NCBI GenBank assembly: GCA_964058805.1
Contig: CAXKVV010002144.1
Coordinates: 620,001-684,000 of the forward strand
Direction of reading: 5' to 3'
Source: Schoenoplectus triqueter
Lineage: Eukaryota; Streptophyta; Magnoliopsida; Poales; Cyperaceae
Length of the DNA: 64,000 nucleotides
The notes under the pieces are model-generated. The model was not told where the DNA came from. It worked only from the letters and a program-made list of their open reading frames with translations, and did not search any database. A program made the position numbers and the translations under genes. Of this stretch, positions 1 through 60,479 are shown piece by piece. Each line of letters begins with the position of its first letter. The first letter of the stretch is position 1.

Positions 1-3000
1 TGGCGTCGGGACCTGTTTTCATGTTTTGCACTCTCGGACTCGATTTCGGCCGTACCGAGGGCGTCGGGTCCCGTTTTCATGTTTTGCGCGCCCAAACTCG
101 GTTTCGGCGTTACCGAAGGCTTCGGGTCCCGTTTTCATGTTTTGCGCCCCCAAACTCGGTTTCGGCCGTACCGAGGGCGTCGGGTCCCGTTTTCATGTTT
201 TGCGCGCCCAAACTCGGTTTCGGCGGTACCGAGGGCTTCGGGTCCCGTTTTCATGTTTTGCGCACCCGGACTCATTTTCGGCGGTACCGAGGGCGTCGGG
301 TCCCGTGTTCATGTTTTGCGCTCCGCGACTCGTTTTCGGCGGTACCGATGGCGTCGGGACCCGTTTTCATGCTTTGCGCTCTCGGACTCGTTTTCGACGG
401 TACCGAGGGCGTCGGGTCCCGTTTTCATGTTTTGCGCTCCCCGACTCGTTTGCGGCGGTACCGTTGGCGTCGGGACCCGTTTTCATGTTTTGCGCTCGCG
501 GACTCGGTTTCGGCAGTACCGAGGGCGTCGGGTCCCGTTTTCATGTTTTGCGCGCCCGAACTCGGTTTCGGCGGTACCGAGGGCGTCGCGTCTCATTTTC
601 ATTTTTTGCGCTCCCGGACCCGATTTCGGCGGTACCGAGGGCGTCGGGTCCCGTTTTCATGTTTTGTGCGCCCGAACTCGGTTTCGGCAGTACCGAGGGC
701 GTCGGGTCCCGTTTTTATGTTTTGAGCACCCCGACTCGTTTTCGGCGGTACCGAGGGCGTCGGGACCCGTTTTCATGTTTTGTGCTCTCGGACTCTATTT
801 CGGCAGTACCGAGGGCGTCGGGTCCCGTTTTCATTTTTTGCGCGCCCGAACTCGGTTTCGGCTGTTCCGAGGGCGTCGGGTCCCGTTTTCAAGTTTTGCG
901 CCCCCCGACTCGTTTTCGGCGGTACCGATGGCGTCGGGACCCGTTTTCATGTTTAGCGCTCTCGGACTCGATTTCGGCCGTACCGAGGGCGTCGGGGTCC
1001 CGTTTTCATGTTTTGCGCGCCCAAACTCGGTTTCGGCGGTACCGAGGGCTTCGGGTCCCGTTTTCATGTTTTGCGCGCCCGAACTCGGTTTCGGCAGTAC
1101 CGAGGGCGTCGGGTCCCGTTTTTATGTTTTGAGCACCCCGACTCGTTTTCGGCGGTACCGAGGGCGTCGGGACCCGTTTTCATGTTTTGTGCTCTCGGAC
1201 TCTATTTCGGCAGTACCGAGGGCGTCGGGTCCCGTTTTCATTTTTTGCGCGCCCGAACTCGGTTTCGGCTGTTCCGAGGGCGTCGGGTCCCGTTTTCATG
1301 TTTTGCGCCCCCCGACTCGTTTTCGGCGGTACCGATGGCGTCGGGACCCGTTTTCATGTTTAGCGCTCTCGGACTCGATTTCGGCCGTACCGAGGGCGTC
1401 GGGGTCCCGTTTTCATGTTTTGCGCGCCCAAACTCGGTTTCGGCGGTACCGAGGGCTTCGGGTCCCGTTTTCATGTTTTGCGCCCCCGAACTCGGTTTCG
1501 GCGGTACCGAGGGCTTTGGTTCCCGTTTTCATGTTTTGCGCTCCCGGACTCGTTTTCGGCGGTACCGAGGGCGTCGGGTCCCGTGTTCATGTTTTGCGCT
1601 CCGCGACTCGTTTTCGGCGGTACCGATGGCGTCGGGACCCGTTTTCATGTTTTGCGCTCTCGGACTCGTTTTCGACGGTACCGAGGGCGTCGGGTCCCGT
1701 TTTCATGTTTTGCGCTCCCCGACTCGTTTGCGGCGGTACCGTTGGCGTCGGGACCCGTTTTCATTTTTTGCGCTCTCGGACTTGGTTTCGGCAGTACCGA
1801 GGGCGTCGGGTCCCGTTTTCATGTTTTGCGCGCCCGAACTCGGTTTCGGCGGTACCGAGGGCGTCGGGTCCCGTTTTCATGTTTTGCGCTCCCCGACTCG
1901 TTTTCGACGGTACCGATGGCGTCGGGACCCGTTTTCATGTTTTGCACTCTCGGACTCGATTTCGGCCGTACCGAGGGCGTCGGGTCCCGTTTTCATGTTT
2001 TGCGCGCCCAAACTCGGTTTCGGCGGTACCGAAGGCTTCGGGTCCCGTTTTCATGTTTTGCGCCCCCGAACTCGGTTTCGGCCGTACCGAGGGCGTCGGG
2101 TCCCGTTTTCATGTTTTGCGCGCCCAAACTCGGTTTCGGCGGTACCGAGGGCTTCGGGTCCCGTTTTCATGTTTTGCGCACCCGGACTCATTTTCGGCGG
2201 TACCGAGGGCGTCGGGTCCCGTGTTCATGTTTTGCGCTCCGCGACTCGTTTTCGGCGGTACCGATGGCGTCGGGACCCGTTTTCATGTTTTGCGCTCTCG
2301 GACTCGTTTTCGACGGTACCGAGGGCGTCGGGTCCCGTTTTCATGTTTTGCGCTCCCCGACTCGTTTGCGGCGGTACCGTTGGCGTCGGGACCCGTTTTC
2401 ATGTTTTGCGCTCTCGGACTCGGTTTCGGCAGTACCGAGGGCGTCGGGTCCCGTTTTCATGTTTTGCGCGCCCGAACTCGGTTTCGGCGGTACCGAGGGC
2501 GTCGCGGCTCGTTTTCATTTTTTGCGCTCCCGGACCCGATTTCGGCGGTACCGAGGGCGTCGGGTCCCGTTTTCATGTTTTGCGCGCCCGAACTCGGTTT
2601 CGGCAGTACCGAGGGCGTCGGGTCCCGTTTTTATGTTTTGAGCACCCCGACTCGTTTTCGGCGGTACCGAGGGCGTCGGGACCCGTTTTCATGTTTTGTG
2701 CTCTCGGACTCTCTTTCGGCAGTACCGAGGGCGTCGGGTCCCGTTTTCATTTTTTGCGCGCCCGAACTCGGTTTCGGCTGTTCCGAGGGCGTCGGGTCCC
2801 GTTTTCATGTTTTGCGCCCCCCGACTCGTTTTCGGCGGCACCGATGGCGTCGGGACCCGTTTTCATGTTTAGCGCTCTCGGACTCGATTTCGGCCGTACC
2901 GAGGGCGTCGGGGTCCCGTTTTCATGTTTTGCGCGCCCAAACTCGGTTTCGGCGGTACCGAGGGCTTTGGGTCCCGTTTTCATGTTTTGCGCCCCCGAAC

Positions 3001-3500
3001 TCGGTTTCGGCGGTACCGAGGGCTTTGGTTCCCGTTTTCATGTTTTGCGCTCCCGGACTCGTTTTCGGCGGTACCGAGGGCGTCGGGTCCCGTGTTCATG
3101 TTTTGCGCTCCGCGACTCGTTTTCGGCGGTACCGATGGCGTCGGGACCCCTTTTCATGTTTTGCGCTCTCGGACTCGTTTTCGACTGTACCGAGGGCGTC
3201 GGGTCCCGTTTTCATGTTTTGCGCTCCCCGACTCGTTTGCGGCGATACCGTTGGCGTCGGGACCCGTTTTCATGTTTTGCGCTCTCGGACTGGGTTTCGG
3301 CAGTACCGAGGGCGTCGGGACCCGTTTTCATGTTTTGCGCTCTCGGACTCGATTTCGGCCTTACCGAGGGCGTCGGGTCCTGTTTTCATGTTTTGCGCGC
3401 CCGAACTCGGTTTCGGCGGTACCGAGGGCGTCGGGTCCTGTTTTCATATTTTGCGCTCCCCGACTCGTTTTCGGCGGTACCGATGGCGTCGGGACCCGTT
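1..3500 (+). repeat. About 1,916-bp higher-order duplication (33 monomers + 2 bp)
   Basis: The variant order beginning at the GCACTCTCGGACTCG monomer near 21 is repeated from 1,937, an offset of 1,916 bp. A related block recurs at an offset of 1,509 bp (1,415 to 2,924). The left copy is cut by the window start, so its true extent is unknown. Confidence 0.6.
662..1475 (+). repeat. 407-bp tandem duplication (seven monomers, one of 59 bp)
   Basis: Two adjacent copies start near 662 and 1,069. Each contains the same ordered variants: a GTTTTTATGTTTTGAGC monomer, a GTGCTCTCGGACTCT monomer, a GGCTGTTCCGAGG monomer, a CATGTTTAGCGC monomer and one 59-bp unit with GTCGGGGTCCCG. The offset is exactly 407 = 7 x 58 + 1, the extra base being in the 59-bp unit. 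A third related copy lies near 2,580-2,990. Confidence 0.7.
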
Positions 3501-4905
3501 TTCATGATTTGCACTCTCGGACTCGATTTCGGCCGTACCGAGGGCGTCGGGTCCCGTTTTCATGTTTTGCGCGCCCAAACTCGGTTTCGGCGGTACCGAA
3601 GGCTTCGGGTCCCGTTTTCATGTTTTGCGCCCCCGAACTCTGTTTCGGCCGCACCGAGGGCGTCGGGTCCCGTTTTCATGTTTTGCGCGCCCAAACTCGG
3701 TTTCGGCGGTATCGAGGGCTTCGGGTCCCATTTTCATGTTTTGCGCGCCCAAACTCGGTTTCGGCGGTACCGAGGGCTTCGGGTCCCGTTTTCATGTTTT
3801 GCGCACCCGGACTCATTTTCGGCGATACCGAGGGCGTCGGGTCCAGTGTTCATGTCTTGCGTTCCGCGACTCGTTTTCGGCGGTACCGACGGCATCGGGA
3901 CCCGTTTTCATGTTTTGCGCGCCCGGACTCGTTTTCGACGATACTGACGGCGACGGGTCCCGTTTTCATGTTTTGCGCTCCCGGACTCGTTTTCGGCGGA
4001 ACCGAGGGCGTCGGGTCCCGTGTTCATGTTTTGCGCTCCGCGACTCGTTTTCGGCGGTACCGATGGCGTCGGGACCCCTTTTCATGTTTTGCGCTCTCGG
4101 ACTCGTTTTCGACTGTACCGAGGGCGTCGGGTCCCGTTTTCATGTTTTGCGCTCCCCGACTCGTTTGCGGCGATACCGTTGGCGTCGGGACCCGTTTTCA
4201 TGTTTTGCGCTCTCGGACTGGGTTTCGGCAGTACCGAGGGCGTCGGGACCCGTTTTCATGTTTTGCGCTCTCGGACTCGATTTCGGCCTTACCGAGGGCG
4301 TCGGGTCCTGTTTTCATGTTTTGCGCGCCCGAACTCGGTTTCGGCGGTACCGAGGGCGTCGGGTCCTGTTTTCATATTTTGCGCTCCCCGACTCGTTTTC
4401 GGCGGTACCGATGGCGTCGGGACCCGTTTTCATGATTTGCACTCTCGGACTCGATTTCGGCCGTACCGAGGGCGTCGGGTCCCGTTTTCATGTTTTGCGC
4501 GCCCAAACTCGGTTTCGGCGGTACCGAAGGCTTCGGGTCCCGTTTTCATGTTTTGCGCCCCCGAACTCTGTTTCGGCCGCACCGAGGGCGTCGGGTCCCG
4601 TTTTCATGTTTTGCGCGCCCAAACTCGGTTTCGGCGGTATCGAGGGCTTCGGGTCCCATTTTCATGTTTTGCGCGCCCAAACTCGGTTTCGGCGGTACCG
4701 AGGGCTTCGGGTCCCGTTTTCATGTTTTGCGCACCCGGACTCATTTTCGGCGATACCGAGGGCGTCGGGTCCAGTGTTCATGTCTTGCGTTCCGCGACTC
4801 GTTTTCGGCGGTACCGACGGCATCGGGACCCGTTTTCATGTTTTGCGCGCCCGGACTCGTTTTCGACGATACTGACGGCGACGGGTCCCGTTTTCATGTT
4901 TTGCG
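3050..4905 (+). repeat. 928-bp tandem duplication (16 monomers)
   Basis: The distinctive GACCCCTTTTCATG variant occurs at 3,146 and 4,074, exactly 928 bp apart. The monomer order after it is the same in both copies through the GATACTGACGGCGACGGG variant. The copies diverge near 3,980 and 4,911, which places the unit ends. Confidence 0.75.
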
Positions 4906-7799: not shown

Positions 7800-10700
7800 T
7801 GCGCGCCCAAACTCGGTTTCGGCGGTACCGAGGGCTTCGGGTCCCATTTTCATGTTTTGCGCGCCCAAACTCGGTTTCGGCGGTACCGAGGGCTTCAGGT
7901 CCCGTTTTCATGTTTTGCGCACCCGGACTCATTTTCGGCGATACCGAGGGCGTCGGGTCCAGTGTTCATGTTTTGCGCTCCGCGACTCGTTTTCGGCGGT
8001 ACCGACGGCATCGGGACCCGTTTTCATGTTTTGCGCTCTCGGACTCGTTTTCGACGATACTGACGGCGACGGGTCCCGTTTTCATGTTTTGCGCTCCCCG
8101 ACTCGTTTGCGGCGATACCGTTGGCGTCGTACCCGTTTTCATGTTTTGCGCTCTCGGACTCGGTTTCGGTCGTACCGAGGGCGTCGGGTCCCGTTTTCAT
8201 GTTTTGCGCGCCCGAACTCGGTTTCTGCGGTACCGAGGGCGTCGGGTCTCGTTTTCATGTTTTGCGCACCCGGACTCGTTTTCGGCGGTACCGAGGGCGT
8301 CGGGTCCCGTGTTCATGTTTTGCGCTCCGCGACTCGTTTTCGGCGGTACCGATGGCGTCGGGACCCGTTTTCATGTTTTGCGCTCTCGGACTCGATTTCG
8401 GCCTTACCGAGGGCGTCGGGTCCCGTTTTCATGTTTTGCGCGCCCAAACTCGGTTTCGGCGGAACCGAAGGCTTCGGGTCCCGTTTTCATGTTTTGCGCC
8501 CCCGAACTCGGTTTCGGCCGTACCGAGGGCGTCGGGTCCCGTTTTCATGTTTTGCGCGCCCGGACTCGTTTTCGGCGGTACCGAGGGCGTCGGGTCCCGT
8601 GTTCATGTTTTGCGCTCCGCGACTCGTTTTCGGCGGTACCGATGGCGTCGGGACCCGTTTTCATGTTTTGCGCTCTCGGACTCGTTTTCGGCCGTACCGA
8701 GGGCGTCGGGTCCCGTTTTCATGTTTTGCGCGCCCGAACTCGGTTTCGGCCGTACCGAGGGCGTCGGGTCCCGTTTTCATGTTTTGCGCTTTCGGACTCG
8801 GTTTCGGGCGTACCGAGGGCGTCGGGTCCCGTTTTCATGTTTTGCGCGCCCGAACTCGGTTTCTGCGGTACCGAGGGCGTCGGGTCTCGTTTTCATGTTT
8901 TGCGCACCCGGACTCGTTTTCGGCGGTACCGAGGGCGTCGGGTCCCGTGTTCATGTTTTGCGCTCCGCGACTCGTTTTCGGCGGTACCGATGGCTTCGGG
9001 ACCCGTTTTCATGTTTTGCGCTCTCAGACTCGTTTTCGACGGTACCGAGGGCGTCGAGTCCCGTTTTCATTTTTTTGCGCTCCCCGACTCGTTTGCGGCG
9101 GTACCGTTGGCGTCGGGACCCGTTTTCATTTTTTTGCGCTCTCGAACTCGGTTTCGGCAGTACCGAGGGCGTCGGGTCCCGTTTTCATGTTTTGCGCGCC
9201 CGAACTCGGTTTCGGCGGTACCGAGGGCGTCGGGTCCCGTTTTCATGTTTTGCGCTCCCCGACTCGTTTTCGGCGGTACCGATGGCGTCGGGACCCGTTT
9301 TCATGTTTTGCACTCTCGGACTCGATTTCGGCCGTACCGAGGGCGTCGGGTCGCGTTTTCATGTTTTGCGCGCCCGAACTCTGTTTCGGCGGTACCAAGG
9401 GCGTCGGGCCCCGTTTTCATATTTTGCGCTCCCCGACTCGTTTTCGGCGGTACCGATGGCGTCGGGACCCGTTTTCATGATTTGCACTCTCGGACTCGAT
9501 TTCGGCCGTACCGAGGGCGTCGGGTCCCGTTTTCATGTTTTGCGCGCCCAAACTCGGTTTCGGCGGTACCGAAGGCTTCGGGTCCCGTTTTCATGTTTTG
9601 CGCCCCCGAACTCTGTTTCGGCCGCACCGAGGGCGTCGGGTCCCGTTTTCATGTTTTGCGCGCCCCAACTCGGTTTCGGCGGTACCGAGGGCTTCGGGTT
9701 CCATTTTCATGTTTTGCGCGCCCAAACTCGGTTTCGGCGGTACCGAGGGCTTCGGGTCCCGTTTTCATGTTTTGCGCACACGGACTCATTTTCGGCGATA
9801 CCGAGGGCGTCGGGTCCAGTGTTCATGTTTTGCGCTCCGCGACTCGTTTTCGGCGGTACCGACGGCATCGGGACCCGTTTTCATGTTTTGCGCTCTCGGA
9901 CTCGTTTTCGACGATACTGACGGCGACGGGTCCCGTTTTCATGTTTTGCGCTCCCCGACTCGTTTGCGGCGATACCGTTGGCGTCGGACCCGTTTTCATG
10001 TTTTGCGCTCTCGGACTCGGTTTCGGTCGTACCGAGGGCGTCGGGTCCCGTTTTCATGTTTTGCGCGCCCGAACTCGGTTTCTGTGGTACCGAGGGCGTC
10101 GGGTCTCGTTTTCATGTTTTGCGCACCCGGACTCGTTTTCGGCGGTACCGAGGGCGTCGGGTCCCGTGTTCATGTTTTGCGCTCCGCGACTCGTTTTCGG
10201 CGGTACCGATGGCGTCGGGACCCGTTTTCATGTTTTGCGCTCTCGGACTCGATTTCAGCCTTACCGAGGGCGTCGGGTCCCGTTTTCATGTTTTGCGCGC
10301 CCAAACTCGGTTTCGGCGGAACCGAAGGCTTCGGGTCCCGTTTTCATGTTTTGCGCCCCCGAACTCGGTTTCGGCCGTACCGAGGGCGTCGGGTCCCGTT
10401 TTCATGTTTTGCGCGCCCAAACTCGGTTTCGGCGGTACCGAGGGCTTCGGGTCCCGTTTTCATGTTTTGCGCACCCGGACTCGTTTTCGGCGGTACCGAG
10501 GGCGTCTGGTCCCGTGTTCATGTTTTGCGCTCCGCGACTCATTTTCGGCGGTACCGATGGCGTCGGGACCCGTTTTCATGTTTTGCGCTCTCGGACTCGT
10601 TTTCGACGGTGCCGAGGGCGTCGGGTCCCGTTTTCATGTTTTGCGCTCCCCGACTCGTTTGCGGCGGTACCGTTGGCGTCGGACTCGTTTTCATGTTTTG

Positions 10701-13700: not shown

Positions 13701-16360
13701 TCGCGTTTTCATGTTTTGCGCGCCCGAACTCTGTTTCGGCGGTACCAAGGGCGTCGGGCCCCGTTTTCATATTTTGCGCTCCCCGACTCGTTTTCGGCGG
13801 TACCGATGGCGTCGGGACCCGTTTTCATGATTTGCACTCTCGGACTCGATTTCGGCCGTACCGAGGGCGTCGGGTCCCGTTTTCATGTTTTGCGCGCCCA
13901 AACTCGGTTTCGGCGGTACCGAAGGCTTCGGGTCCCGTTTTCATGTTTTGCGCCCCCGAACTCTGTTTCGGCCGCACCGAGGGCGTCGGGTCCCGTTTTC
14001 ATGTTTTGCGCGCCCCAACTCTGTTTCGGCGGTACCGAGGGCTTCGGGTTCCATTTTCATGTTTTGCGCGCCCAAACTCGGTTTCGGCGGTACCGAGGGC
14101 TTCGGGTCCCGTTTTCATGTTTTGCGCACACGGACTCATTTTCGGCGATACCGAGGGCGTCGGGTCCAGTGTTCATGTTTTGCGCTCCGCGACTCGTTTT
14201 CGGCGGTACCGACGGCATCGGGACCCGTTTTCATGTTTTGCGCTCTCGGACTCGTTTTCGACGATACTGACGGCGACGGGTCCCGTTTTCATGTTTTGCG
14301 CTCCCCGACTCGTTTGCGGCGATACCGTTGGCGTCGGACCCGTTTTCATGTTTTGCGCTCTCGGACTCGGTTTCGGTCGTACCGAGGGCGTCGGGTCCCG
14401 TTTTCATGTTTTGCGCGCCCGAACTCGGTTTCTGTGGTACCGAGGGCGTCGGGTCTCGTTTTCATGTTTTGCGCACCCGGACTCGTTTTCGGCGGTACCG
14501 AGGGCGTCGGGTCCCGTGTTCATGTTTTGCGCTCCGCGACTCGTTTTCGGCGGTACCGATGGCGTCGGGACCCGTTTTCATGTTTTGCGCTCTCGGACTC
14601 GATTTCAGCCTTACCGAGGGCGTCGGGTCCCGTTTTCATGTTTTGCGCGCCCAAACTCGGTTTCGGCGGAACCGAAGGCTTCGGGTCCCGTTTTCATGTT
14701 TTGCGCCCCCGAACTCGGTTTCGGCCGTACCGAGGGCGTCGGGTCCCGTTTTCATGTTTTGCGCGCCCAAACTCGGTTTCGGCGGTACCGAGGGCTTCGG
14801 GTCCCGTTTTCATGTTTTGCGCACCCGGACTCGTTTTCGGCGGTACCGAGGGCGTCTGGTCCCGTGTTCATGTTTTGCGCTCCGCGACTCATTTTCGGCG
14901 GTACCGATGGCGTCGGGACCCGTTTTCATGTTTTGCGCTCTCGGACTCGTTTTCGACGGTGCCGAGGGCGTCGGGTCCCGTTTTCATGTTTTGCGCTCCC
15001 CGACTCGTTTGCGGCGGTACCGTTGGCGTCGGACTCGTTTTCATGTTTTGCGCTCTCGGACTCGGTTTCGGTCGTACCGAGGGCGTCGGGTCCCGTTTTC
15101 ATGTTTTGCGCGCCCGAACTCGGTTTCTGCGGTACCGAGGGCGTCGGGTCTCGTTTTCATGTTTTGCGCCCCCGGACTCGTTTTCGGCGGTACCGAGGGC
15201 GTCGGGTCCCGTGTTCATGTTTTGCGCTCCGCGACTCGTTTTCGGCGGTACCGATGGCGTCGGGACCCGTTTTCATGTTTTGCGCTCTCGGACTCGTTTT
15301 CGACGGTACCGAGGGCGTCGGGTCCCGTTTTCATGTTTTGCGCTCCCCGACTCGTTTGCGGCGGTACCGTTGGCGTCGGGACCCGTTTTCATGTTTTGTG
15401 CTCTCGGACTCGGTTTCGGCAGTACCGAGGGCGTCGGGTCCCGTTTTCATGTTTTGCGCGCCCGAACTCGGTTTCGGCGGTACCGAGGGCGTCGGGTCCC
15501 GTTTTCATGTTTTGCGCTCCCCGACTCGTTTTCGGCGGTACCGATGGCGTCGGGACCTGTTTTCATGTTTTGCACTCTCGGAATCGATTTCGGCCGTACC
15601 GAGGGCGTCGGGTCCCGTTTTCATGTTTTGCGCGCCCGAACTCGGTTTCGGCCGTACCGAGGGCGTCGGGTCTCGTTTTCATGTTTTGAGCACCCCGACT
15701 CGTTTTCGGCGGTACCGATGGCGTCGGGACCCGTTTTCATGTTTTGTGCTCTCGGACTCTATTTCGGCAGTACCGAGGGCGTCGGGTCCCGTTTTCATTT
15801 TTTGCGCGCCCGAACTCGGTTTCGGCTGTTCCGAGGGCGTCGGGTCCTGTTTTCATGTTTTGCGCCCCCCGACTCGTTTTCGGCGGTACCGATGGCGTCG
15901 GGACCCGTTTTCATGTTTAGCGCTCTCGGACTCGATTTCGGCCGTACCGTGGGCGTCGGGGTCCCGTTTTCATGTTTTGCGCGCCCAAACTCGGTTTCGG
16001 CGGTACCGAGGGCGTCGGGTCCCGTTTTCATGTTTTGAGCACCCCGACTCGTTTTCGGCGGTACCGATGGCGTCGGGACCCGTTTTCATGTTTTGTGCTC
16101 TCGGACTCTATTTCGGCAGTACCGAGGGCGTCGGGTCCCGTTTTCATTTTTGCGCGCCCGAACTCGGTTTCGGCTGTTCCGAGGGGGTTGTGTCCCGTTT
16201 TCATGTTTTGCGCCCCCCGACTCGTTTTCGGCGGTACCGATGGCGTCGGGACCCGTTTTCATGTTTTGCGCTCTCGGACTCGATTTCGGCCGTACCGAGG
16301 GCGTCGGGGTCCCGTTTTCATGTTTTGCGCGCCCAAACTCGGTTTCGGCGGTACCGAGGG
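7800..16360 (+). repeat. 4.2/4.35-kb tandem higher-order repeat, two copies
   Basis: Copy A (about 7,800-12,010) and copy B (about 11,976-16,360) share the same order of rare variants. The offset is 4,176 bp (72 monomers) at the left and 4,350 bp (75 monomers) to the right of about 13.1 kb. Copy B has therefore gained three monomers near 12.85-13.1 kb. From 9,535 and 13,885 onward the two copies look almost identical over more than 2 kb. A partial third copy runs from about 19,160 to 22,010. Confidence 0.8.
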
Positions 16361-19300
16361 CTTCGGGTCCCGTTTTCATGTTTTGCGCCCCCGAACTCGG
16401 TTTCGGCGGTACCGAGGGCTTTGGTTCCCGTTTTTATGTTTTGCGCACCCGGACTCGTTTTCGGCGGTACCGAGGGCGTCGGGTCCCGTGTTCATTTTTT
16501 GCGCTCTCGGACTCGTTTTCGACGGTATCGAGGGCGTCGGGTCCCGTTTTCATGTTTTGCGCCCCCCGACTCGTTTGCGGCGGTACCGTTGGCGTCGGAC
16601 CCATTTTCATGTTTTGCGCTCCCGAACTCGGTTTCGGCCGTACCGAGGGCGTCGGGTCCCGTTTTCATGTTTTGCGCGCCCAAACTCGGTTTCGGCGGTA
16701 CCGAGGGCTTCGGGTCCCGTTTTCATGTTTTGCGCACCCGGACTCGTTTTCGGCGGTACCGAGGGCGTCGGGTCCCGTTTTCATGTTTTGCGCTCCCCGA
16801 CTCGTTTTCGGCGGTACCGATGGCGTCGGGACCCGTTTTCATGTTTTGCACTCTCGGACTCGATTTCGGCCGTACCGAGGGCGTCGGGTCCCGTTTTCAT
16901 GTTTTGCGCGCCCGAACTCGGTTTCGGCCGTACCGAGGGCGTCGGGTCCCGTTTTCATGTTTTGAGCACCCCGACTCGTTTTCGGCGGTACCGATGGCGT
17001 CGGGACCCGTTTTCATGTTTTGTGCTCTCGGACTCTATTTCGGCAGTACCGAGGGCGTCGGGTCCCGTTTTCATTTTTTGCGCGCCCGAACTCGGTTTCG
17101 GCTGTTCCGAGGGCGTCGGGTCCCGTTTTCATGTTTTGCGCCCCCCGACTCGTTTTCGGCGGTACCGATGGCGTCGGGACCCGTTTTCATGTTTAGCGCT
17201 CTCGGACTCGATTTCGGCCGTACCGAGGGCGTCGGGGTCCCGTTTTCATGTTTTGCGCGCCCAAACTCGGTTTCGGCGGTACCGAGGGCTTCGGGTCCCG
17301 TTTTCATGTTTTGCGCCCCCGAACTCGGTTTCGGCGGTACCGAGGGCTTTGGTTCTCGTTTTCATGTTTTGCGCACCCGGACTCGTTTTCGGCGGTACCG
17401 AGGGCGTCGAGTCCCGTGTTCATGTTTTGCGCTCTCGGACTCGTTTTCGACGGTACCGAGGGCGTCGGGTCCCGTTTTCATGTTTTGCGCTCCCCGACTC
17501 GTTTGCGGCGGTACCGTTGGCGTCGGACCCGTTTTCATGTTTTGCGCCCCCGAACTCGGTTTCGGCCGTACCGAGGGCGTCGGGTCCCGTTTTCATGTTT
17601 TGCGCGCCCCAACTCGATTTCGGCGGTACCGAGGGCTCCGGGTCCCGTTTTCATGTTTTGCGCACCCGGACTCGTTTTCAGCGGTACCGAGGGCGTCGGG
17701 TCCCGTGTTCATGTTTTGCGCTCCCGACTCGTTTTCGGCGGTACCGATGGCGTCGGGACCCGTTTTCATGTTTTGCGGTCTCGGACTCGTTTTCGACGGT
17801 ACCGAGGGCGTCGGGTCCCGTTTTCATGTTTTGCGCTCCCCGACTCGTTTTCGACGGTACCGATGGCGTCGGGACCCGTTTTCATGTTTTGCCCTCTCGG
17901 ACTCGATTTCGGCCGTACCGAGGGCGTCGGGTCCCGTTTTCATGTTTTGCGCGCCCGAACTCGGTTTCGGCCGTACCGAGGGCGTCGGGTCCCGTTTTCA
18001 TGTTTTGCGCACCCGGACTCATTGTCGGCGGTACCGAGGGCGTCGGGTCCCGTTTTCATGTTTTGCGCTCCCCGACTCGTTTGCGGCGGTACCGTTGGCG
18101 TCGGGACCCGTTTTCATGTTTTGCGCTCGCGGACTCGGTTTCGGCCGTACCGAGGGCGTCGGGTCCCGTTTTCATGTTTTGCGCGCCCGAACTCGGTTTT
18201 GGCGGTACCGAGGGCGTCGCGTCTCGTTTTCATGTTTTGCGCGCCCGAACTCGGTTTCGGCCGTACCGAGGGCGTCGGGTCCCGTTTTCATGTTTTGAGC
18301 ACCCCGACTCGTTTTCGGCGGTACCGATGGCGTCGGGACCCGTTTTCATGTTTTGTGCTCTCGGACTCTATTTTGGCTGTACCGAGGGCGTCGGGTCCCG
18401 TTTTCATTTTTTGCGCGCCCGAACTCGGTTTCGGCTGTTCCGAGGGCGTCGGGTCCCGTTTTCATGTTTTGCGCCCCCCGACTCGTTTTCGGCGGTACCG
18501 ATGGCGTCGGGACCCGTTTTCATGTTTAGCGCTCTCGGACTCGATTTCGGCCGTACCGAGTGCGTCGGGGTCCCGTTTTCATGTTTTGCGCGCCCAAACT
18601 CGGTTTCGGCGGTACCGAGGGCTTCGGGTCCCGTTTTCATGTTTTGCGCCCCCGAACTCGAGTTCGGCGGTACCGAGGGCTTTGGTTCCCGTTTTCATGT
18701 TTTGCGCACCCGGACTCGTTTTCGGCGGTACCGAGGGCGTCGGGTCCCGTGTTCATGTTTTGCGCTCTCGAACTCGGTTTCGGCAGTACCGAGGGCGTCG
18801 GGTCCCGTTTTCATGTTTTGCGCGCCCGAACTCGGTTTCGGCAGTACCGAGGGCGTCGGGTCCCGTTTTCATGTTTTGCGCTCCCCGACTTGTTTTCGGC
18901 GGTACCGATGGCGTCGGGACCCGTTTTCATGTTTTGCACTCTCGGACTCGATTTCGGCCGTACCGAGGGCGTCGGGTCCCGTTTTCATGTTTTGCGCGCC
19001 CGAACTCGGTTTTGGCCGTACCGAGGGCGTCGGGTCCCGTTTTCATGTTTTGAGCACCCCGACTCGTTTTCGGCGGTACCAATGGCGTCGGGACCCGTTT
19101 TCATGTTTTGTGCTCTCGGACTCTATTTCGGCAGTACCGAGGGCGTCGGTTCCCGTTTTCATGTTTTGCGCACCCGGACTCGTTTTCGGCGGTACCGAGG
19201 GCGTCGGGTCCCGTGTTCATGTTTTGCGCTCCGCGACTCGTTTTCGGCGGTACCGATGGCGTCGGGACCCGTTTTCATGTTTTGCGCTCTCGGACTCGAT

Positions 19301-22300
19301 TTCGGCCTTACCGAGGGCGTCGGGTCCCGTTTTCATGTTTTGCGCGCCCAAACTCGGTTTCGGCGGAACCGAAGGCTTCGGGTCCCGTTTTCATGTTTTG
19401 CGCCCCCGAACTCGGTTTCGGCCGTACCGAGGGCGTCGGGTCCCGTTTTCATGTTTTGCGCGCCCGGACTCGTTTTCGGCGGTACCGAGGGCGTCGGGTC
19501 CCGTGTTCATGTTTTGCGCTCCGCGACTCGTTTTCGGCGGTACCGATGGCGTCGGGACCCGTTTTCATGTTTTGCGCTCTCGGACTCGTTTTCGGCCGTA
19601 CCGAGGGCGTCGGGTCCCGTTTTCATGTTTTGCGCGCCCGAACTCGGTTTCGGCCGTACCGAGGGCGTCGGGTCCCGTTTTCATGTTTTGCGCTTTCGGA
19701 CTCGGTTTCGGGCGTACCGAGGGCGTCGGGTCCCGTTTTCATGTTTTGCACGCCCGAACTCGGTTTCTGCGGTACCGAGGGCGTCGGGTCTCGTTTTCAT
19801 GTTTTGCGCACCCGGACTCGTTTTCGGCGGTACCGAGGGCGTCGGGTCCCGTGTTCATGTTTTGCGCTCCGCGACTCGTTTTCGGCGGTACCGATGGCTT
19901 CGGGACCCGTTTTCATGTTTTGCGCTCTCGGACTCGTTTTCGACGGTACCGAGGGCGTCGAGTCCCGTTTTCATGTTTTGCGCTCCCCGACTCGTTTGCG
20001 GCGGTACCGTTGGCGTCGGGACCCGTTTTCATTTTTTTGCGCTCTCGAACTCGGTTTCGGCAGTACCGAGGGCGTCGGGTCCCGTTTTCATGTTTTGCGC
20101 GCCCGAACTCGGTTTCGGCGGTACCGAGGGCGTCGGGTCCCGTTTTCATGTTCTGCGCTCCCCGACTCGTTTTCGGCGGTACCGATGGCGTCGGGACCCG
20201 TTTTCATGTTTTGCACTCTCGGACTCGATTTCGGCCGTACCGAGGGCGTCGGGTCGCGTTTTCATGTTTTGCGCGCCCGAACTCGGTTTCGGCGGTACCA
20301 AGGGCGTCGGGCCCCGTTTTCATATTTTGCGCTCCCCGACTCGTTTTCGGCGGTACCGATGGCGTCGGGACCCGTTTTCATGATTTGCACTCTCGGACTC
20401 GATTTCGGCCGTACCGAGGGCGTCGGGTCCCGTTTTCATGTTTTGCGCGCCCAAACTCGGTTTCGGCGGTACCGAAGGCTTCGGGTCCCGTTTTCATGTT
20501 TTGCGCCCCCGAACTCTGTTTCGGCCGCACCGAGGGCGTCGGGTCCCGTTTTCATGTTTTGCGCGCCCCAACTCGGTTTCGGCGGTACCGAGGGCTTCGG
20601 GTTCCATTTTCATGTTTTGCGCGCCCAAACTCGGTTTCGGCGGTACCGAGGGCTTCGGGTCCCGTTTTCATGTTTTGCGCACACGGACTCATTTTCGGCG
20701 ATACCGAGGGCGTCGGGTCCAGTGTTCATGTTTTGCGCTCCGCGACTCGTTTTCGGCGGTACCGACGGCATCGGGACCCGTTTTCATGTTTTGCGCTCTC
20801 GGACTCGTTTTCGACGATACTGACGGCGACGGGTCCCGTTTTCATGTTTTGCGCTCCCCGACTCGTTTGCGGCGATACCGTTGGCGTCGGACCCGTTTTC
20901 ATGTTTTGCGCTCTCGGACTCGGTTTCGGTCGTACCGAGGGCGTCGGGTCCCGTTTTCATGTTTTGCGCGCCCGAACTCGGTTTCTGTGGTACCGAGGGC
21001 GTCGGGTCTCGTTTTCATGTTTTGCGCACCCGGACTCGTTTTCGGCGGTACCGAGGGCGTCGGGTCCCGTGTTCATGTTTTGCGCTCCGCGACTCGTTTT
21101 CGGCGGTACCGATGGCGTCGGGACCCGTTTTCATGTTTTGCGCTCTCGGACTCGATTTCAGCCTTACCGAGGGCGTCGGGTCCCGTTTTCATGTTTTGCG
21201 CGCCCAAACTCGGTTTCGGCGGAACCGAAGGCTTCGGGTCCCGTTTTCATGTTTTGCGCCCCCGAACTCGGTTTCGGCCGTACCGAGGGCGTCGGGTCCC
21301 GTTTTCATGTTTTGCGCGCCTAAACTCGGTTTCGGCGGTACCGAGGGCTTCGGGTCCCGTTTTCATGTTTTGCGCACCCGGACTCGTTTTCGGCGGTACC
21401 GAGGGCGTCTGGTCCCGTGTTCATGTTTTGCGCTCCGCGACTCATTTTCGGCGGTACCGATGGCGTCGGGACCCGTTTTCATGTTTTGCGCTCTCGGACT
21501 CGTTTTCGACGGTGCCGAGGGCGTCGGGTCCCGTTTTCATGTTTTGCGCTCCCCGACTCGTTTGCGGCGGTACCGTTGGCGTCGGACTCGTTTTCATGTT
21601 TTGCGCTCTCGGACTCGGTTTCGGTCGTACCGAGGGCGTCGGGTCCCGTTTTCATGTTTTGCGCGCCCGAACTCGGTTTCTGCGGTACCGAGGGCGTCGG
21701 GTCTCGTTTTCATGTTTTGCGCCCCCGGACTCGTTTTCGGCGGTACCGAGGGCGTCGGGTCCCGTGTTCATGTTTTGCGCTCCGCGACTCGTTTTCGGCG
21801 GTACCGATGGCGTCGGGACCCGTTTTCATGTTTTGCGCTCTCGGACTCGTTTTCGACGGTACCGAGGGCGTCGGGTCCCGTTTTCATGTTTTGCGCTCCC
21901 CGACTCGTTTGCGGCGGTACCGTTGGCGTCGGGACCCGTTTTCATGTTTTGTGCTCTCGGACTCGGTTTCGGCCGTACCGAGGGCATCGGGTCCCGTTTT
22001 CATGTTTTGCGCGCCCGAACTCGGTTTCGGCTGTTCCGAGGGGGTTGTGTCCCGTTTTCATGTTTTGCGCCCCCCGACTCGTTTTCGGCGGTACCGATGG
22101 CGTCGGGACCCGTTTTCATGTTTTGCGCTCTCGGACTCGATTTCGGCCGTACCGAGGGCGTCGGGGTCCCGTTTTCATGTTTTGCGCGCCCAAACTCGGT
22201 TTCGGCGGTACCGAGGGCTTCGGGTCCCGTTTTCATGTTTTGCGCCCCCGAACTCGGTTTCGGCGGTACCGAGGGCTTTGGTTCCCGTTTTTATGTTTTG

Positions 22301-31028: not shown

Positions 31029-31782
31029 GGCGTCGGGACCCGTTTTCATGTTTTGCGCTCCCGGACTCGTTTTCGGCGGTACCGATGGCGTCGGGTCCCG
31101 TTGTCATGTTTTGCGCTCTCGGACTCATTTTCGGCGGTACCGATGGCGTCGGGACCCGTTTTCATGTTTTGCGCTCTCGGACTCGTTTTCGGCGGCGCCG
31201 AGGGCGTCGGGTCCCGTTTTCATGTTTTGCGCTCCCCGACTCGTTTTCGGCGGTACCGATGGCGTCGGGACCCGTTTTCATGTTTTGCGCTCTCGGACTC
31301 GTTTTCGACGGTGCCGAGGGCGTCGGGTCCCGTTTTCATGTTTTGCGCTCCCCCACTCGTTTGCGGCGGTACCGTTGGCGTCGGGACCCGCTTTCATGTT
31401 TTGCGCTCTCGGACTCGGTTTCGGCGGTACCGAGGGCGTCGGGTCCCGTTTTCATGTTTTGCGCGCCCGAACTCGGTTTCGGCGGTACCGAGGGCGTCGG
31501 GTCTCGTTTTCATGTTTTGCGCTCCCGGACCCGGTTTCGGCGGTACCGAGGGCGTCGGGTCCCGTTTTCATGTTTTGCGCGCCCGAACTCGGTTTCGGCC
31601 GAACCGAGGGCGTCGGGTCCCGTTTTCATGTTTTGCGCTCTCGGACTCTATTTCGGCAGTACCGAGGGCGTCAGGTCCCGTTTTTATGTTTTGCGCGCCC
31701 GAACTCGGTTTCGGCGGTTCGGAGGGCGTCGGGTCCCGTTTTCAAGTTTTGCGCCCCCCGACTCGTTTTCGGCGGTACCGAT

Positions 31783-31813
31783 GGCGTCGGGACTCGATTT
31801 CGGCCGTACCGAG
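31783..31813 (+). repeat. 31-bp truncated satellite monomer
   Basis: The unit starting at 31,783 passes directly from GGCGTCGGGAC into TCGATTTCGGCC, and the next unit starts at 31,814. It lacks 27 bp, including the T-rich patch. It is the shortest unit I found in the array. Confidence 0.85.
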
Positions 31814-34189
31814 GGCGTCGGGGTCCCGTTTTCATGTTTTGCGCGCCCAAACTCGGTTTCGGCGGTACCGAGTGCTTCGGGTCCCGTTTTCATGTTTTGC
31901 GCCCCCGAACTCGGTTTCGGCGGTACCGAGGGCTTTGGTTCCCGTTTTCATGTTTTGCGCACCCGGACTCGTTTTCGGCGGTACCGAGGGCGTCGGGTCC
32001 CGTTTTCATGTTTTGCGCTCTCGGACTCGTTTTTGACGGTACCGAGGGCGTCGGGTCCCGTTTTCATGTTTTGCGCTCCCCGACTCGTTTGTGGCGGTAC
32101 CGTTGGCGTCGGGACCCGATTTCATGTTTTGCGCTCTCGGACTCGGTTTCGGCCGTACCGAGGGTGTCGGGTCCCGTTTTCATGTTTTGCGCTCTCGGAC
32201 TCGGTTTCGGCCGTACCGAGGGTGTCGGGTCCCGTTTTCATGTTTTGCGCGCCCGAACTCGGTTTCTGCGGTACCGAGGGCGTCGGGTCCCGTTTTCATG
32301 TTTTGCGCACCCGGACTTGTTTTCGGCGGTACCGAGGGCGTCGGGTCCCGTGTTCATGTTTTGCGCTCCGTGACTCGTTTTCGGCGGTACCGATGGCGTC
32401 GGGACCCGTTTTCATGTTTTGCGCTCTCGGACTCGGTTTCGGCGGTACCGAGGGCTTCGGGTCCAGTTTTCATTTTTTGCGTACCCGGACTTGGTTTCGG
32501 CGGTACCGAGGGCGTCGGGTCCCGTGTTCATGTTTTGCGCTCCGCGACTCGTTTTCGGCGGTACCGATGGCGTCGGGGCCCGTTTTCATGTTTTGCGCTC
32601 CCGGACTCGTTTTCGGCGGTACCGATGGCGTCGGGTCCCGTTTTCATGTTTTGCGCTCCCCGACTCATTTTCGGCGGTACCGATGGCGTCGAGACCCGTT
32701 TTCATGTTTTGCGCTCTCGGACTCGCTTTCGGCGGCGCCGAGGGCGTCGGGTCCCGTTTTCATGTTTTGCGCTCCCCGACTTGTTTTCGGCGGTACCGAT
32801 GGCGTCGGGACCCGTTTTCATGTTTTGCGCTCCCGGACCCGGTTTCGGCGGTACCGAGGGCGGCGGGTCCCGTTTTCATGTTTTGCGCGCCCGAACTCGG
32901 TTTCGGTGGTACCGAGGGCGTCGGGTCCCATTTTCATGTTTTGCGCTCCCCGACTCGTTTTCGGCGGTACCGATGGCGTCGGGACCCGTTTTCATGTTTT
33001 GCGCACCGGGACTCGATTTCGGCCGTAACGAGGGCGTCGGGTCCCGTGTTCATGTTTTGAGCACCCCGACTCGTTTTCGGCGGTACCGATGGCGTCGGGA
33101 CCCGTTTTCATGTTTTGCGCTCTCGGACTCGTTTTTGACGGTACCGAGGGCGTCGGGTCCCGTTTTCATGTTTTGCGCTCCCCGACTCGTTTGCGGCGGT
33201 ACCGTTGGCGTCGGGACCCGATTTCATGTTTTGCGCTCTCGGACTCGGTTTCGGCCGTACCGAGGGTGTCGGGTCCCGTTTTCATGTTTTGCGCTCTCGG
33301 ACTCGGTTTCGGCCGTACCGAGGGTGTCGGGTCCCGTTTTCATGTTTTGCGCGCCCGAACTCGGTTTCTGCGGTACCGATGGCGTCGGTTCCCGTTTTCT
33401 TGTTTTGCGCTCTCGGACTCGGTTTCGGCGGTACCGAGGGCTTCGGGTCCAGTTTTCATGTTTTGCGCACCCGGACTTGGTTTCGGCCGTACCGAGGGCG
33501 TCGGGTCCCGTGTTCATGTTTTGCGCTCCGCGACTCGTTTTCGGCGGTACCGATGGCGTCGGGGCCCGTTTTCATGTTTTGCGCTCCCGGACTCGTTTTC
33601 GGCGGTACCGATGGCGTCGGGTCCCGTTTTCATGTTTTGCGCTCCCCGACTCATTTTCGGCGGTACCAATGGCGTCGAGACCCGTTTTCATGTTTTGCGC
33701 TCTCGGACTCGTTTTCGGCGGCGCCGAGGGCGTCGGGTCCCGTTTTCATGTTTTGCGCTCCCCGACTCGTTTGCGGCGGTACCGATGGCGTCGGGACCCG
33801 TTTTCATGTTTTGCGCTCCCGGACCCGGTTTCGGCGGTACCGAGGGCGTCGGGTCCCGTTTTCATGTTTTGCGCGCCCGAACTCGGTTTCGGTGGTACCG
33901 AGGGCGTCAGGTCCCATTTTCATGTTTTGCGCTCCCCGACTCGTTTTCGGCGGTACCGATGGCGTCGGGACCCGTTTTCATGTTTTGCGCATCGGGACTC
34001 GATTTCGGCCGTACCGAGGGCGTCGGGTCCCGTGTTCATGTTTTGAGCACCCCGACTCGTTTTCGGCGGTACCGATGGCGTCGGGACCCGTTTTCATGTT
34101 TTGCGCTCTCGGACTCGTTTTTGACGGTACCGAGGGCGTCGGGTCCCGTTTTCATGTTTTGCGCTCCCCGACTCGTTTGCGGCGGTACC

Positions 34190-44400: not shown

Positions 44401-45289
44401 GGGCGTCGGGTCCCGTTTTCATGTTTTGCGCCCCCGGACTAGTTTTCGGCGGTACCGAGGGCGGCGGGTCCCGTTTTCATGTTTTGCGCTCCCCGACTCG
44501 TTTTCGGCCTTACCGATGGCGTCGGGACCCGTTTTCATGTTTTGCGCACAGGGACTCGATTTCGGCCGTACCGAGGGCGTCGGGTCCCGTGTTCATGTTT
44601 TGAGCACCCCGACTCGTTTTCGGCGGTACCGATGGCGTCGGGACCCGTTTTCATTTTTTGCGCTCTTGGACTCGGTTTCGGCGGTACCGAGGGCTTCGGG
44701 TCCAGTTTTCATGTTTTGCGCACCCGGACTCGGTTTCGGCGGTACCGAGGGCGTCGGGTGCCGTGTTCATGTTTTGCGCTCCGCGACTCGTTTTCGGCGG
44801 TATCGATGGCGTCGAGACCCGTTTTCATGTTTTGCGCTCTCGGACTCGTTTTCGACGGAACCGAGGGCGTCGGGTCCCGTTTTCTTGTTTTGCGCTCCCC
44901 GACTCATTTACGGCGGTACCGTTGGCGTCGGGACCCGCTTTCATGTTTTGCGCACTCGGACTCGGTTTCGGCAGTACCGAGGGCGTCGGGTCCCGTTTTC
45001 ATGTTTTGCGCGCCCGAACTCGGTTTCGGCGGTACTGAGGGCGTCGGGTCTCGTTTTCATGTTTTGCGCTCCCGTACCCGGTTTCGGCGGTACCGAGGGC
45101 GTCGGGTCCCGTTTTCATGTTTTGCGCGCCCGAACTCGGTTTCGGCCGTACCGAAGGCGTCGGGTCCCGTTTTCATGTTTTGAGCACCCCGACTCGTTTT
45201 CGGCGGTACCGATGGCGTCGGGACCCGTTTTCATGTTTTGCGCTCTCAAACTCTATTTCGGCAGTCCCGAGGGCGTCGGGTCCCGTTTT

Positions 45290-53439: not shown

Positions 53440-55640
53440 GTTTTCGGCGGTACCGATGGCGTCGGGACCCGTTTTCATGTTTTGCGCTCTCGGACTCGTT
53501 TTCGGCGAAGCCGAGGGCGTCGGGTCCCGTTTTCATGTTTTGCGCTCCCCGACTCTATTTCGGCGGTACCGATGGCGTTGGGACCCGTTTTCATGTTTTG
53601 CGCTCCCGGACCCGGTTTCGGCGGTACCGAGGGCGTCGGGTCCCGTTTTCATGTTTTGCGCGCCCGACATCGGTTTCGGTGGTACCGAGGGCGTCGGGTC
53701 CCGTTTTCATGTTTTGCGCCCCCGGACTAGTTTTCGGCGGTACCGAGGGCGGCGGGTCCCATGTTCATGTTTTGCGCTCCTCGACTCGTTTTCGGCGGTA
53801 CCGATGGCGTCGGGACCCGTTTTCATGTTTTGCGCTCTCGGACTCGTTTTCGACGGTACCAAGGGCGTCGGGTCCCGTTTTCATGTTTTGCGCTCCCCGA
53901 CTGGTTTGCGGCGGTACCCTTGGCGTCGGGACCCGATTTCATGTTTTGCGCTCTCGGAATCGGTTTCGGCCGTACCGAGGGCGTCGGGTCCCGTGTTCAT
54001 GTTTTGCGCTCCGCGACTCGTTTTCGGCGGTACCGGTGGCGTCGGGACCCGTTTTCATGTTTTGCGTTCCCGGATCCGGTTTCGGCGGTACGGAGGGCGT
54101 CGGGTCTCGTTTTCATGTTTTGCGCGCCCGAACTCGGTTTCGGCGGTACCGAGGGCGTCGGGTCCCGTTTTCATGTTTTGCGACCCCGGACTAGTTTTCG
54201 GCGGTACGGAGGGCGGCGGGTCCCATGTTCTTTTTTTGCGCTCCCCGACTCGTTTTCGGCGGTAACGATGGCGTCGGGACCCGTTTTCATGTTTTGCGCA
54301 CCGGGACTCGATTTCGGCCGTACCGAGGGCGTCGGGTCCCGTGTTCATGTTTTGAGCACCCCGACTCGTTTTCGGCGGTACCGATGGCGTCGGGACCCGT
54401 TTTCATGTTTTGCGCTCTTGGACTCGGTTTCGGCGGTACCGAGGGCTTTGTGTCCAGTTTTCATGTTTTGCGCTCCCGGAATCGGTTTCGGCGGTACCGA
54501 GGGCGTCGGGTCCCGTGTTCATGTTTTGCGCTCCGCGACTCGTTTTCGGCGGTACCGATGGCGTCGGGACCCGTTTTCATGTTTTGCGCTCTCGGACTCG
54601 TTTTCGGCGGAGCCGAGGGCGTCGGGTCCCGTTTTCATGTTTTGCGCTCCCCGACTCTATTTCGGCGGTACCGATGGCGTCGGGACCCGTTTTCATGTTT
54701 TGCGCTCCCGGACCCGGTTTCGGCGGTACCGAGGGCGGCGGGTCCCGTTTTCATGTTTTGCGCGCCCGAACTCGGTTTCGGTGGTACCGAGGGCGTCGGG
54801 TCCCGTTTTCATGTTTTGCGCCCCCGGACTAGTTTTCAGCGGTACCGAGGGCGGCGGGTCCCATGTTCATGTTTTGCGCTCCTCGACTCGTTTTCGGCGG
54901 TACCGATGGCGTCGGGACCCGTTTTCATGTTTTGCGCTCTCGGACTCGTTTTCGACGGTACCGAGGGCGTCGGGTCCCGTTTTCATGTTTTGCGCTCCCC
55001 GACTCGTTTGCGGCGGTACCCTTGGCGTCGGGACCCGATTTCATGTTTTGCGCTCTCGGAATCGGTTTCGGCCGTACCGAGGGCGTCGGGTCCCGTGTTC
55101 ATGTTTTGCGCTCCGCGACTCGTTTTCGGCGGTACCGGTGGCGTCGGGACCCGTTTTCATGTTTTGCGTTCCCGGATCCGGTTTCGGCGGTACGGAGGGC
55201 GTCGGGTCCCGTTTTCATGTTTTGCGCGCCCGAACTCGGTTTCGGCGATACCGAGGGCGTCGGGTCCCGTTTTCATGTTTTGCGACCCCGGACTAGTTTT
55301 CGGCGGTACCGAGGGCGGCGGGTCCCATGTTCATGTTTTGCGCTCCCCGACTCGTTTTCGGCGGTACCGATGGCGTCGGGACCCGTTTTCATGTTTTGCG
55401 CACCGGGACTCGATTTCGGCCGTACCGAGGGCGTCGGGTCCCGTGTTCATGTTTTGAGCATCCCGACTCGTTTTCGGTGGTACCGATGGCGTCGGGACCC
55501 GTTTTCATGTTTTGCGCTCTTGGACTCGGTTTCGGCGGTACCGAGGGCTTCGTGTCCAGTTTTCATGTTTTGCGCTCCCGGACTCGGTTTCGGCGGTACC
55601 GAGGGCGTCGGGTCCCGTGTTTATGTTTTCCGCTCCGCGA
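53440..55640 (+). repeat. 1,102-bp tandem duplication (19 monomers)
   Basis: The GGATCCGGTTTCGGCGGTAC variant lies near 54,071 and 55,173, exactly 1,102 bp apart. TACCGGTGGCGTC, GCGACCCCGGACTAG and CCCTTGGCGTCGG variants keep the same order in both copies. This is the last duplication before the array ends. Confidence 0.7.
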
Positions 55641-56067
55641 CTCGTTTTCGGCGGTACCGATGGCGTCGGGACCCGTTTTCATGTTTTGCGCTCTCGGACT
55701 CGTTTTCGACGGTACCGAGGGCGTCGGGTGCCGTTTTCATGTTTTGCGCTCCCCGACTCGTTTGCGGCGGTACCGTTGGCGTCGGGACCCGCTTTCATGT
55801 TTTGCGCGCTCGGACTCGGTTTCGGCAGTACCGAGGGCGTCGGGTCCCGTTTTCATGTTTTGCGCGCCCGAACTCGGTTTCGGCGGTACCGAGGGCGTCG
55901 GGTCTCGTTTTCATGTTTTGCGCTCCCGGACCCGGTTTCGGCGGTACCGAGGGCGTCGGGTCCCGTTTTCATGTTTTGCGCGCCCGAACTCGGTTTCGGC
56001 CGTACCGAGGGCGTCGGGTCCCGTTTTCATGTTTTGAGCACCCCGACTCGTTTTCGGCGGTACCGAT

Positions 56068-56101
56068 GGCTGTGCGACCCTTTTTCGCGTGCTCCGCACC
56101 G
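56068..56101 (+). repeat. Decayed terminal satellite monomer at the array edge
   Basis: After the last regular palindrome (TACCGATGG) the next unit should read like GGCGTCGGGACCCG followed by the T-rich patch. Instead it reads GGCTGTGCGACCCTTTTTCG and then GCGTGCTCCGCACC. These align base for base with a satellite unit at many positions, but with about a third changed. Beyond about 56,101 the similarity is lost. Confidence 0.65.
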
Positions 56102-57822: not shown

Positions 57823-57874
<52 letters not shown>

Positions 57875-60467: not shown

Positions 60468-60479
60468 AGAATACAAGGT

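What the first reader, a model, noticed from the sequence alone, without database searches (positions are those of the whole stretch)
1..56069. A 56-kb, CpG-rich 58-bp satellite that I do not recognise
The sequence shows about 967 head-to-tail units of 58 bp with no interruption by transposons. I match it to no plant satellite family I know. Many plant centromeric satellites are 150-180 bp and AT-richer, so a short, GC-rich unit is unusual. Three units make 174 bp, close to those lengths.
Basis: partly seen in the sequence, partly recalled or inferred. Interest (0 to 1): 0.75.

Follow-up and report, generated by a model that had tools for sequence, protein, structure and literature searches.

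The report
Short GC-rich plant centromere-type satellite
The window holds a real, very abundant 58-base tandem repeat of a plant, unusually rich in CG, into which a centromere-type retrotransposon has jumped repeatedly, so it is most likely part of that plant's centromeres: a probably undescribed member of a well-known kind of DNA.

Summary
Window 2-56070 is about 967 head-to-tail 58-bp units, 60% GC, CpG observed/expected 1.62 (0.68 in the flank), uninterrupted by transposons. The window cuts it: the array runs C2057:549,278-676,070 (127 kb), its first 18 kb inverted and more diverged. The family is major in the held 82-Mb assembly: 46,336 near-matches to a 24-base core, roughly 3.1-4.4 Mb. 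Eight array samples of this contig share one consensus; C2067 carries a subfamily four bases different. There is no 174-bp trimer; arrays grow by duplication of many-unit blocks. Fresh mutations favour transitions at CG and CHG, as in methylated DNA.

Best reading: centromeric satellite. A young CRM-type retrotransposon lies in it at 9 of 18 loci, with differing target sites, against 0 of 21 outer flanks of a Tat/Ogre control. Short and GC-rich plant centromere repeats are known: a new member of a known kind.

The parts
1..56070 (+). 58-bp satellite array, about 967 units, consensus GGCGTCGGGTCCCGTTTTCATGTTTTGCGCTCCCGGACTCGTTTTCGGCGGTACCGAG; right-hand part of a 127-kb array (contig C2057:549,278-676,070)
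   Evidence: TRF, lag analysis, segmentation, extent
31760..31822 (+). 31-bp part-unit duplication, the one large phase slip in the window's array
   Evidence: TRF row; single 90-bp step between units
56071..63107 (-). 7.0-kb LTR of a giant Tat/Ogre-type Ty3/gypsy element that abuts the array; element spans C2057:676,071 to about 704,779, LTR regions 99.6% identical, gag-pol on the minus strand
   Evidence: copies and ends; gag, RT, two RNase H types and integrase by Pfam
63108..64000 (+). start of the element's internal region, with an open frame of plant mobile domain type opposite to gag-pol
   Evidence: Pfam PF10536 E 5e-7, 29.7 bits, below the curated cut-off of 34.9; PMD in 57% of Ogre elements (PMC6317226, passage)

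Best explanation
The array belongs to a major satellite family of a plant, probably a monocot, and most likely forms the centromeric, kinetochore-bearing or immediately adjoining part of its chromosomes. Shown: abundance in the held assembly; one shared consensus in eight of eight array samples of this contig; both orientations; a diverged inverted edge beside a homogenised core; growth by duplication of blocks of tens of units; repeated recent insertion of a CRM-type retrotransposon at differing positions of the unit. Inferred: those insertions mark CENH3 chromatin, since CRM group A elements concentrate in centromeres; CG and CHG are methylated; CpG richness persists because block duplication renews arrays faster than deamination erodes them. 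The unit needs no nucleosome length and shows no sign of coding.
For: Abundance 26,795 + 19,541 core matches. CRM-type element: both 663-bp LTRs identical, 5-bp TSD GTACC, TGATG...TATCA ends, tRNA-Met type primer site, frame running into the 3' LTR, matching traits given by Neumann 2011 (PMC3059260, abstract and passages), where all tested group A elements were centromeric. Its LTRs: 40 scored of 118 candidates, 37 of 40 at 99-100% identity; by position they form 22 groups, 19 checked, one a duplicate site, so 18 loci, 9 in satellite (8 of 17 if two sharing a flank count once), against a satellite share of 3.8-5.4%: binomial p 1e-7 to 1.3e-6 for 8 of 17. Control Tat LTR: 0 of 21 distinct outer flanks, Fisher p 2e-4 to 5e-4. 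Six TSDs read in satellite differ (GTACC, GACTT, GAGGG, GACGA, TAATG, GCGTC). Satellite in 7 of 7 grid samples at C2057:720-1,020 kb. Singleton spectrum: transitions per site CG 2.92, CHG 3.71, CHH 1.42; transversions 1.89, 2.01, 2.48; Fisher p 0.0045 for CG+CHG against CHH; the diverged edge shows the same order (C to T / G to A: CG 7.0/10.8%, CHG 12.4/10.2%, CHH 4.2/4.1%).
Against: Half the CRM loci (9 of 18) are outside the satellite. Three Tat LTR edges on this contig touch satellite too (window 56,070; C2057:549,278; L032:7,652); the last two are of the side used for the control but not among its 40 scored matches. One scored Tat copy (L092) runs into satellite after a 10-base internal stub; counting it weakens the contrast to p 0.005. 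The copy in L026 shows no integrase core, and I could not compare its C-terminus with the CR motif, given only in a figure. The held assembly looks like unanchored scaffolds, enriched in repeats of all kinds. On scaffold C2067 satellite follows a telomere piece, though across a 5-kb run of N. No CENH3, FISH or methylation data.
Confidence: 0.58

Rival explanations
1. A pericentromeric or interstitial heterochromatin (knob-like) satellite that carries no CENH3; CRM elements sit in it because centromeres lie near or have shifted past it.
For: Half the CRM loci are outside the satellite; Tat/Ogre elements abut it; CG/CHG transition bias fits ordinary heterochromatin; the inverted edge array is heavily diverged.
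Against: Recent CRM insertions are far more frequent in it than its share of the assembly or than for the Tat control.
Confidence: 0.26
2. A subtelomeric satellite.
For: On scaffold C2067 a telomere piece is followed by satellite: 9 of 9 samples from 15,000 to 19,400 and 6 of 6 from 20,000 to 64,600, then 1 of 8 from 70,000 to 165,600.
Against: The join is a 5-kb run of N, so no continuous sequence links them; the other telomere contig listed, C2051, shows 0 of 4 satellite samples; CRM insertion is not expected at subtelomeres.
Confidence: 0.09
3. A satellite derived from the ribosomal intergenic spacer, amplified away from the rDNA.
For: GC-rich short subrepeats are usual in plant rDNA spacers (recalled); I found no other source.
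Against: No rDNA to compare with: the 5.8S search found none (39 of 2,102 candidates scored), SSU and LSU searches did not complete; no Rfam match in the window.
Confidence: 0.04
4. An assembly artefact, or a short array blown up in assembly.
For: Many contigs are short and one sampled scaffold has N joins; array length was never checked against reads.
Against: The family is on at least 12 scaffolds; 380 distinct units of 966, element junctions with target duplications, and graded divergence.
Confidence: 0.03

Closest known systems
Barley centromere: cereba (CRM clade) with the short GC-rich satellite (AGGGAG)n
   Same: Monocot centromere built of a CRM-type retrotransposon and a short GC-rich satellite; both are said to bind CENH3 (PMC10834757, passages)
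   Different: 58-bp unit of unrelated sequence; CENH3 binding not tested here
Chionographis japonica Chio1/Chio2 (23 and 28 bp)
   Same: Short, sub-nucleosomal centromeric units in a monocot, arrays in both orientations, no known relatives (PMC10264360, passages)
   Different: Chio has dyad symmetries; the 58-mer shows no excess folding (z -0.94 to 1.09 in 7 sequences); holocentricity here unknown
Plant CRM clade group A centromeric retrotransposons
   Same: LTR ends, tRNA-Met primer site, frame entering the 3' LTR
   Different: The copy studied shows no integrase core; CR motif not verified
Conventional 150-180-bp plant centromeric satellites
   Same: Abundant, homogenised, invaded by CRM-type elements (recalled for the class)
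   Different: 58-bp unit, 60% GC, CpG observed/expected 1.62, no 174-bp super-unit

Membership tests
Satellite DNA | Long head-to-tail arrays of one unit, many copies in the genome | tested here: met
Satellite DNA | Non-coding | tested here: met
   Stop-bearing distinct units 51 of 380 against 55.4 +/- 3.8 when columns are shuffled. Against: over all 966 units, stops are 104 against 119.2 +/- 4.3 and the longest frame 3,442 against a shuffled maximum of 3,302; I put this down to block-duplicated, non-independent units
Plant centromeric satellite | Binds CENH3 | not testable with these tools
   No chromatin data
Plant centromeric satellite | Lies at primary constrictions of all or most chromosomes | not testable with these tools
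   Chromosomes appear not to be held; the contigs look like unanchored scaffolds
Plant centromeric satellite | Preferred target of CRM-type elements | tested here: met
   9 of 18 loci against 0 of 21 for the Tat control
CRM group A retrotransposon (element in L026) | LTR ends TGATG / T-or-C-ATCA and tRNA-Met primer site | tested here: met
   against PMC3059260 passages; that the primer site fits tRNA-Met is recalled
CRM group A retrotransposon (element in L026) | Polyprotein frame extends into the 3' LTR | tested here: met
   Open frame L026:4372-7968 passes the LTR start at 7860; the paper finds this in all group A but also in a few group B and C elements
CRM group A retrotransposon (element in L026) | CR motif at the integrase C-terminus | tested here: inconclusive
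   Motif is given only in a figure that is not held
CRM group A retrotransposon (element in L026) | Complete integrase core | tested here: not met
   No rve hit in this copy; it looks like a deletion derivative; other copies are about 0.9 kb longer between LTRs, their coding content not examined
Higher-order repeat with 174-bp (3-unit) period | Units three apart more alike than neighbours | tested here: not met
   Lag 3 not among the eight best lags in the window array; in one of six samples (L029) it is, at background identity
rDNA-spacer-derived satellite | Similarity to the species' own rDNA spacer | not testable with these tools
   No rDNA found; SSU/LSU searches unanswered
Tat/Ogre element (window flank) | RT with two RNase H domains; long LTRs | tested here: met
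   RVT_1, RT_RNaseH, RVT_3, rve, gag; 7-kb LTRs; that a second RNase H marks this group is recalled

The most novel reading that the evidence does not exclude
The 58-bp, CpG-rich, methylated unit is the CENH3-binding repeat of a monocot whose centromeric arrays renew by duplicating blocks of tens of units rather than single units or fixed higher-order repeats, so that renewal outruns deamination and keeps a CpG-dense centromere in a methylating genome; the many separate arrays could even mean a poly- or holocentric plant.
Probability: 0.25. Interest if true: 0.55.

Novelty: new member of a known kind. Interest (0 to 1): 0.36.

Why it matters
If it binds CENH3 it adds a clear case of a sub-nucleosomal, CpG-dense plant centromere repeat, with a young retrotransposon marking the chromatin. 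The CpG density makes a test of methylation, deamination and array renewal possible at one locus. It is otherwise a typical fast-evolving plant satellite.

Tried and rejected
Trimer (174 bp) or any fixed higher-order repeat: rejected; the best lags differ between samples (window 101, 75, 36; only 38 leads in two of the six samples). Half-unit (29-bp) ancestry: not significant, 146 of 500 shuffles reach the score. Cruciform or hairpin-forming unit: no excess folding in 7 of 7 sequences (z -0.94 to 1.09). Coding repeat, prompted by an open frame of 4,620 codons on the + strand: rejected on distinct units (51 of 380 with a stop, 55.4 +/- 3.8 expected), although the whole array has fewer stops than column shuffles (104 against 119.2 +/- 4.3), which copied blocks can explain. 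CpG kept because unmethylated: not favoured, given the CG and CHG transition excess, which is indirect. Telomere link on C2067: N-joined. Species: a plastid insert on C823 has the order trnH (ARAGORN) - rps19 (named from recall of the frame) - psbA (Pfam), which I recall as the monocot type; a protein search with the plant mobile domain frame gave 35 hits, all of source 'jgi' and without organism. Papers looked into for a match without success: PMC5672272 (its '58 bp' is 5S rDNA), PMC10959549, PMC9526063, PMC12046898 (passages). A first segmentation lost phase and was replaced.
Full report
Observation. The window's first 56,070 bases are one satellite array. TRF reports period 58 with 86% matches; a unit-by-unit segmentation gives 966 units covering 99.9% of the stretch, 94.1% of steps exactly 58 bp, mean divergence 8.4% from the consensus GGCGTCGGGTCCCGTTTTCATGTTTTGCGCTCCCGGACTCGTTTTCGGCGGTACCGAG. 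GC is 0.60 and CpG observed/expected 1.62, against 0.68 in the flank. The + strand is strikingly poor in A (5,159 A against 17,070 T).

Extent. The window is contig C2057:620,001-684,000 of an assembly held as 82,091,230 bases in 2,086 contigs. Eighteen contigs sampled for length run from 2.5 to 427 kb; C2057 is 1.49 Mb and C22, met later, 1.01 Mb. Scaffold C2067 contains 5-kb runs of N. I infer unanchored scaffolds of a larger genome. The array runs from 549,278 (first core match 549,320) to 676,070 and switches orientation near 567,730. On a coarse grid of C2057, 0 of 7 samples between 20 and 470 kb are satellite, 7 of 7 between 720 and 1,020 kb are, 0 of 3 at 1,070-1,200 kb (though 1,100-1,110 kb is), and 3 of 3 at 1,250, 1,340 and 1,450 kb. 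A 24-base core with up to two mismatches occurs 46,336 times in the assembly (the first 100 places listed lie on C8, C22, C23, C44, C50 and C79). With 826 matches per 967 units in the window and 104 per 172 in a diverged sample, that is roughly 54,000-77,000 units or 3.1-4.4 Mb, 3.8-5.4% of what is held. This does not give the share of the whole genome.

Anatomy and evolution. Eight of eight array samples, all of this contig, give the same consensus. The inverted left edge is older: 12.7% divergence and 280 distinct units of 307, against 380 distinct of 966 in the window. In the window neighbouring units are no more alike (0.857) than units 1 to 119 apart on average (0.868), and no lag dominates; instead exact blocks recur, 14 runs of ten or more units, the longest 37 units at a lag of 36 (2.1 kb), with others at 75, 101 and 137 units. 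So arrays grow by block duplication, and the suggested 174-bp super-unit is not there. A subfamily on C2067 differs at 4 of 58 consensus positions and has lost the GGTACC site (45 units). Of 426 unit sequences seen once in the homogenised arrays, 225 differ by one base from a common unit; transitions per site are 2.92 at CG, 3.71 at CHG, 1.42 at CHH and 0.83 at A/T, with no such trend in transversions (CG+CHG against CHH, Fisher p 0.0045). The diverged edge shows the same order. That is the footprint expected of CG and CHG methylation; it is indirect.

Link to centromeres. In the next array of the contig (L026:3752-8522) sits a 4.77-kb LTR element with identical 663-bp LTRs, a 5-bp target duplication GTACC, LTR ends TGATG...TATCA, a tRNA-Met type primer site and a single frame with gag, reverse transcriptase and RNase H that runs into the 3' LTR. 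Neumann et al. 2011 (PMC3059260; [quoted passage not shown] they report that all tested group A elements are centromeric. This copy shows no integrase core. The genome search (query L026:3753-4415, one base off the LTR) scored 40 matches of 118 candidates, 37 of 40 at 99-100% identity. By position they fall into 22 groups; I checked the outer flanks of 19 (C2079:400,528, C1958 and C408 not checked; C2062 and C88 have one outer flank each). C1581 is the same site as a C2079 complex and was dropped, leaving 18 loci: 9 in satellite (C2057 four times, C2079 twice, C2082, C50, C2062), 9 not (C512, C379, C2067, C86, C2081, C1057, C566, C88, C1893). Two satellite loci share a right flank, so 8 of 17 is the cautious count. 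Target duplications within the satellite differ, so the element follows something other than a fixed sequence. As a control I took the LTR end of the Tat/Ogre element of the window flank: 40 matches scored of 480 candidates; 2 on C2057 were known to run into internal sequence, 38 were fetched: 14 matched internal sequence, 1 satellite after a 10-base stub of internal sequence, 23 other sequence. After dropping one duplicate flank (L109) and one that begins as internal sequence (L122), 0 of 21 outer flanks are satellite. Fisher p is 2.3e-4 (9 of 18) or 5.0e-4 (8 of 17), and 0.005 if the stub case is counted as satellite. Against this, three Tat LTR edges on C2057, two of them of the same side but outside the 40 scored, do touch satellite.

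Surroundings. Window 56,071-63,107 is a 7-kb LTR; the element continues to a second LTR at C2057:697,752-704,779 and then 1.1 kb of internal sequence before the next array (the two 8.1-kb stretches are 99.6% identical). Its polyprotein is on the minus strand with gag, RT, two kinds of RNase H and integrase, and a plant-mobile-domain-like frame lies opposite to it. PMD occurs in 57% of Ogre elements (PMC6317226, passage).

Comparison. GC-rich and short plant centromere repeats are known: plants show no GC preference in a survey of 282 species (PMC4053949, passages); barley combines cereba and a short GC-rich satellite, both said to bind CENH3 (PMC10834757, passages); Chionographis has 23- and 28-bp units (PMC10264360, passages). 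Six searches of open-access papers did not lead me to a description of a 58-bp plant centromere satellite; most listed papers were seen as listing only, and subscription journals and supplements are not covered. Scans of viral and prokaryotic contigs for the exact core found none, as expected.

Verdict. Real, ordinary in kind, probably undescribed in sequence, probably centromeric. Without CENH3 or FISH data the centromere claim stays at about 0.58.

Noticed in passing
56071-64000 (C2057:676071-705869): Giant Tat/Ogre-type element with 7-kb LTRs, arranged LTR-internal-LTR-partial internal, ending in a junction of internal sequence with the next 58-bp array.
   Followed up: partly
56377-56564: 36/73-bp tandem repeat inside the 7-kb LTR.
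   Followed up: no
L026:3752-8522 and 21 further groups of LTR matches: Young CRM-type family, 37 of 40 scored LTR matches at 99-100% identity, with two LTR-to-LTR spacings (about 4.1 and 5.1 kb); the shorter form in L026 shows no integrase core.
   Followed up: partly
C2057:514079-520126 and 532207-538255: 6-kb inner duplication at 99.7% identity left of the array.
   Followed up: no
C2067:15001-64600: Satellite subfamily four bases different from the consensus, KpnI site lost; joined by a 5-kb run of N to a telomere piece.
   Followed up: partly
1-56070, unit position 10: The T (70%) / A (28%) variant lies at the centre of the odd palindrome CGGG[T/A]CCCG, as a small inversion would give.
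   Followed up: no
1-56070, + strand: Open frames up to 4,620 codons because the unit is poor in A; no sign of coding selection on distinct units, a slight lack of stops over the whole array.
   Followed up: yes
L051 (C823, about 7.8-11.5 kb): Incomplete plastid insert with trnH, an rps19-like frame and psbA.
   Followed up: partly
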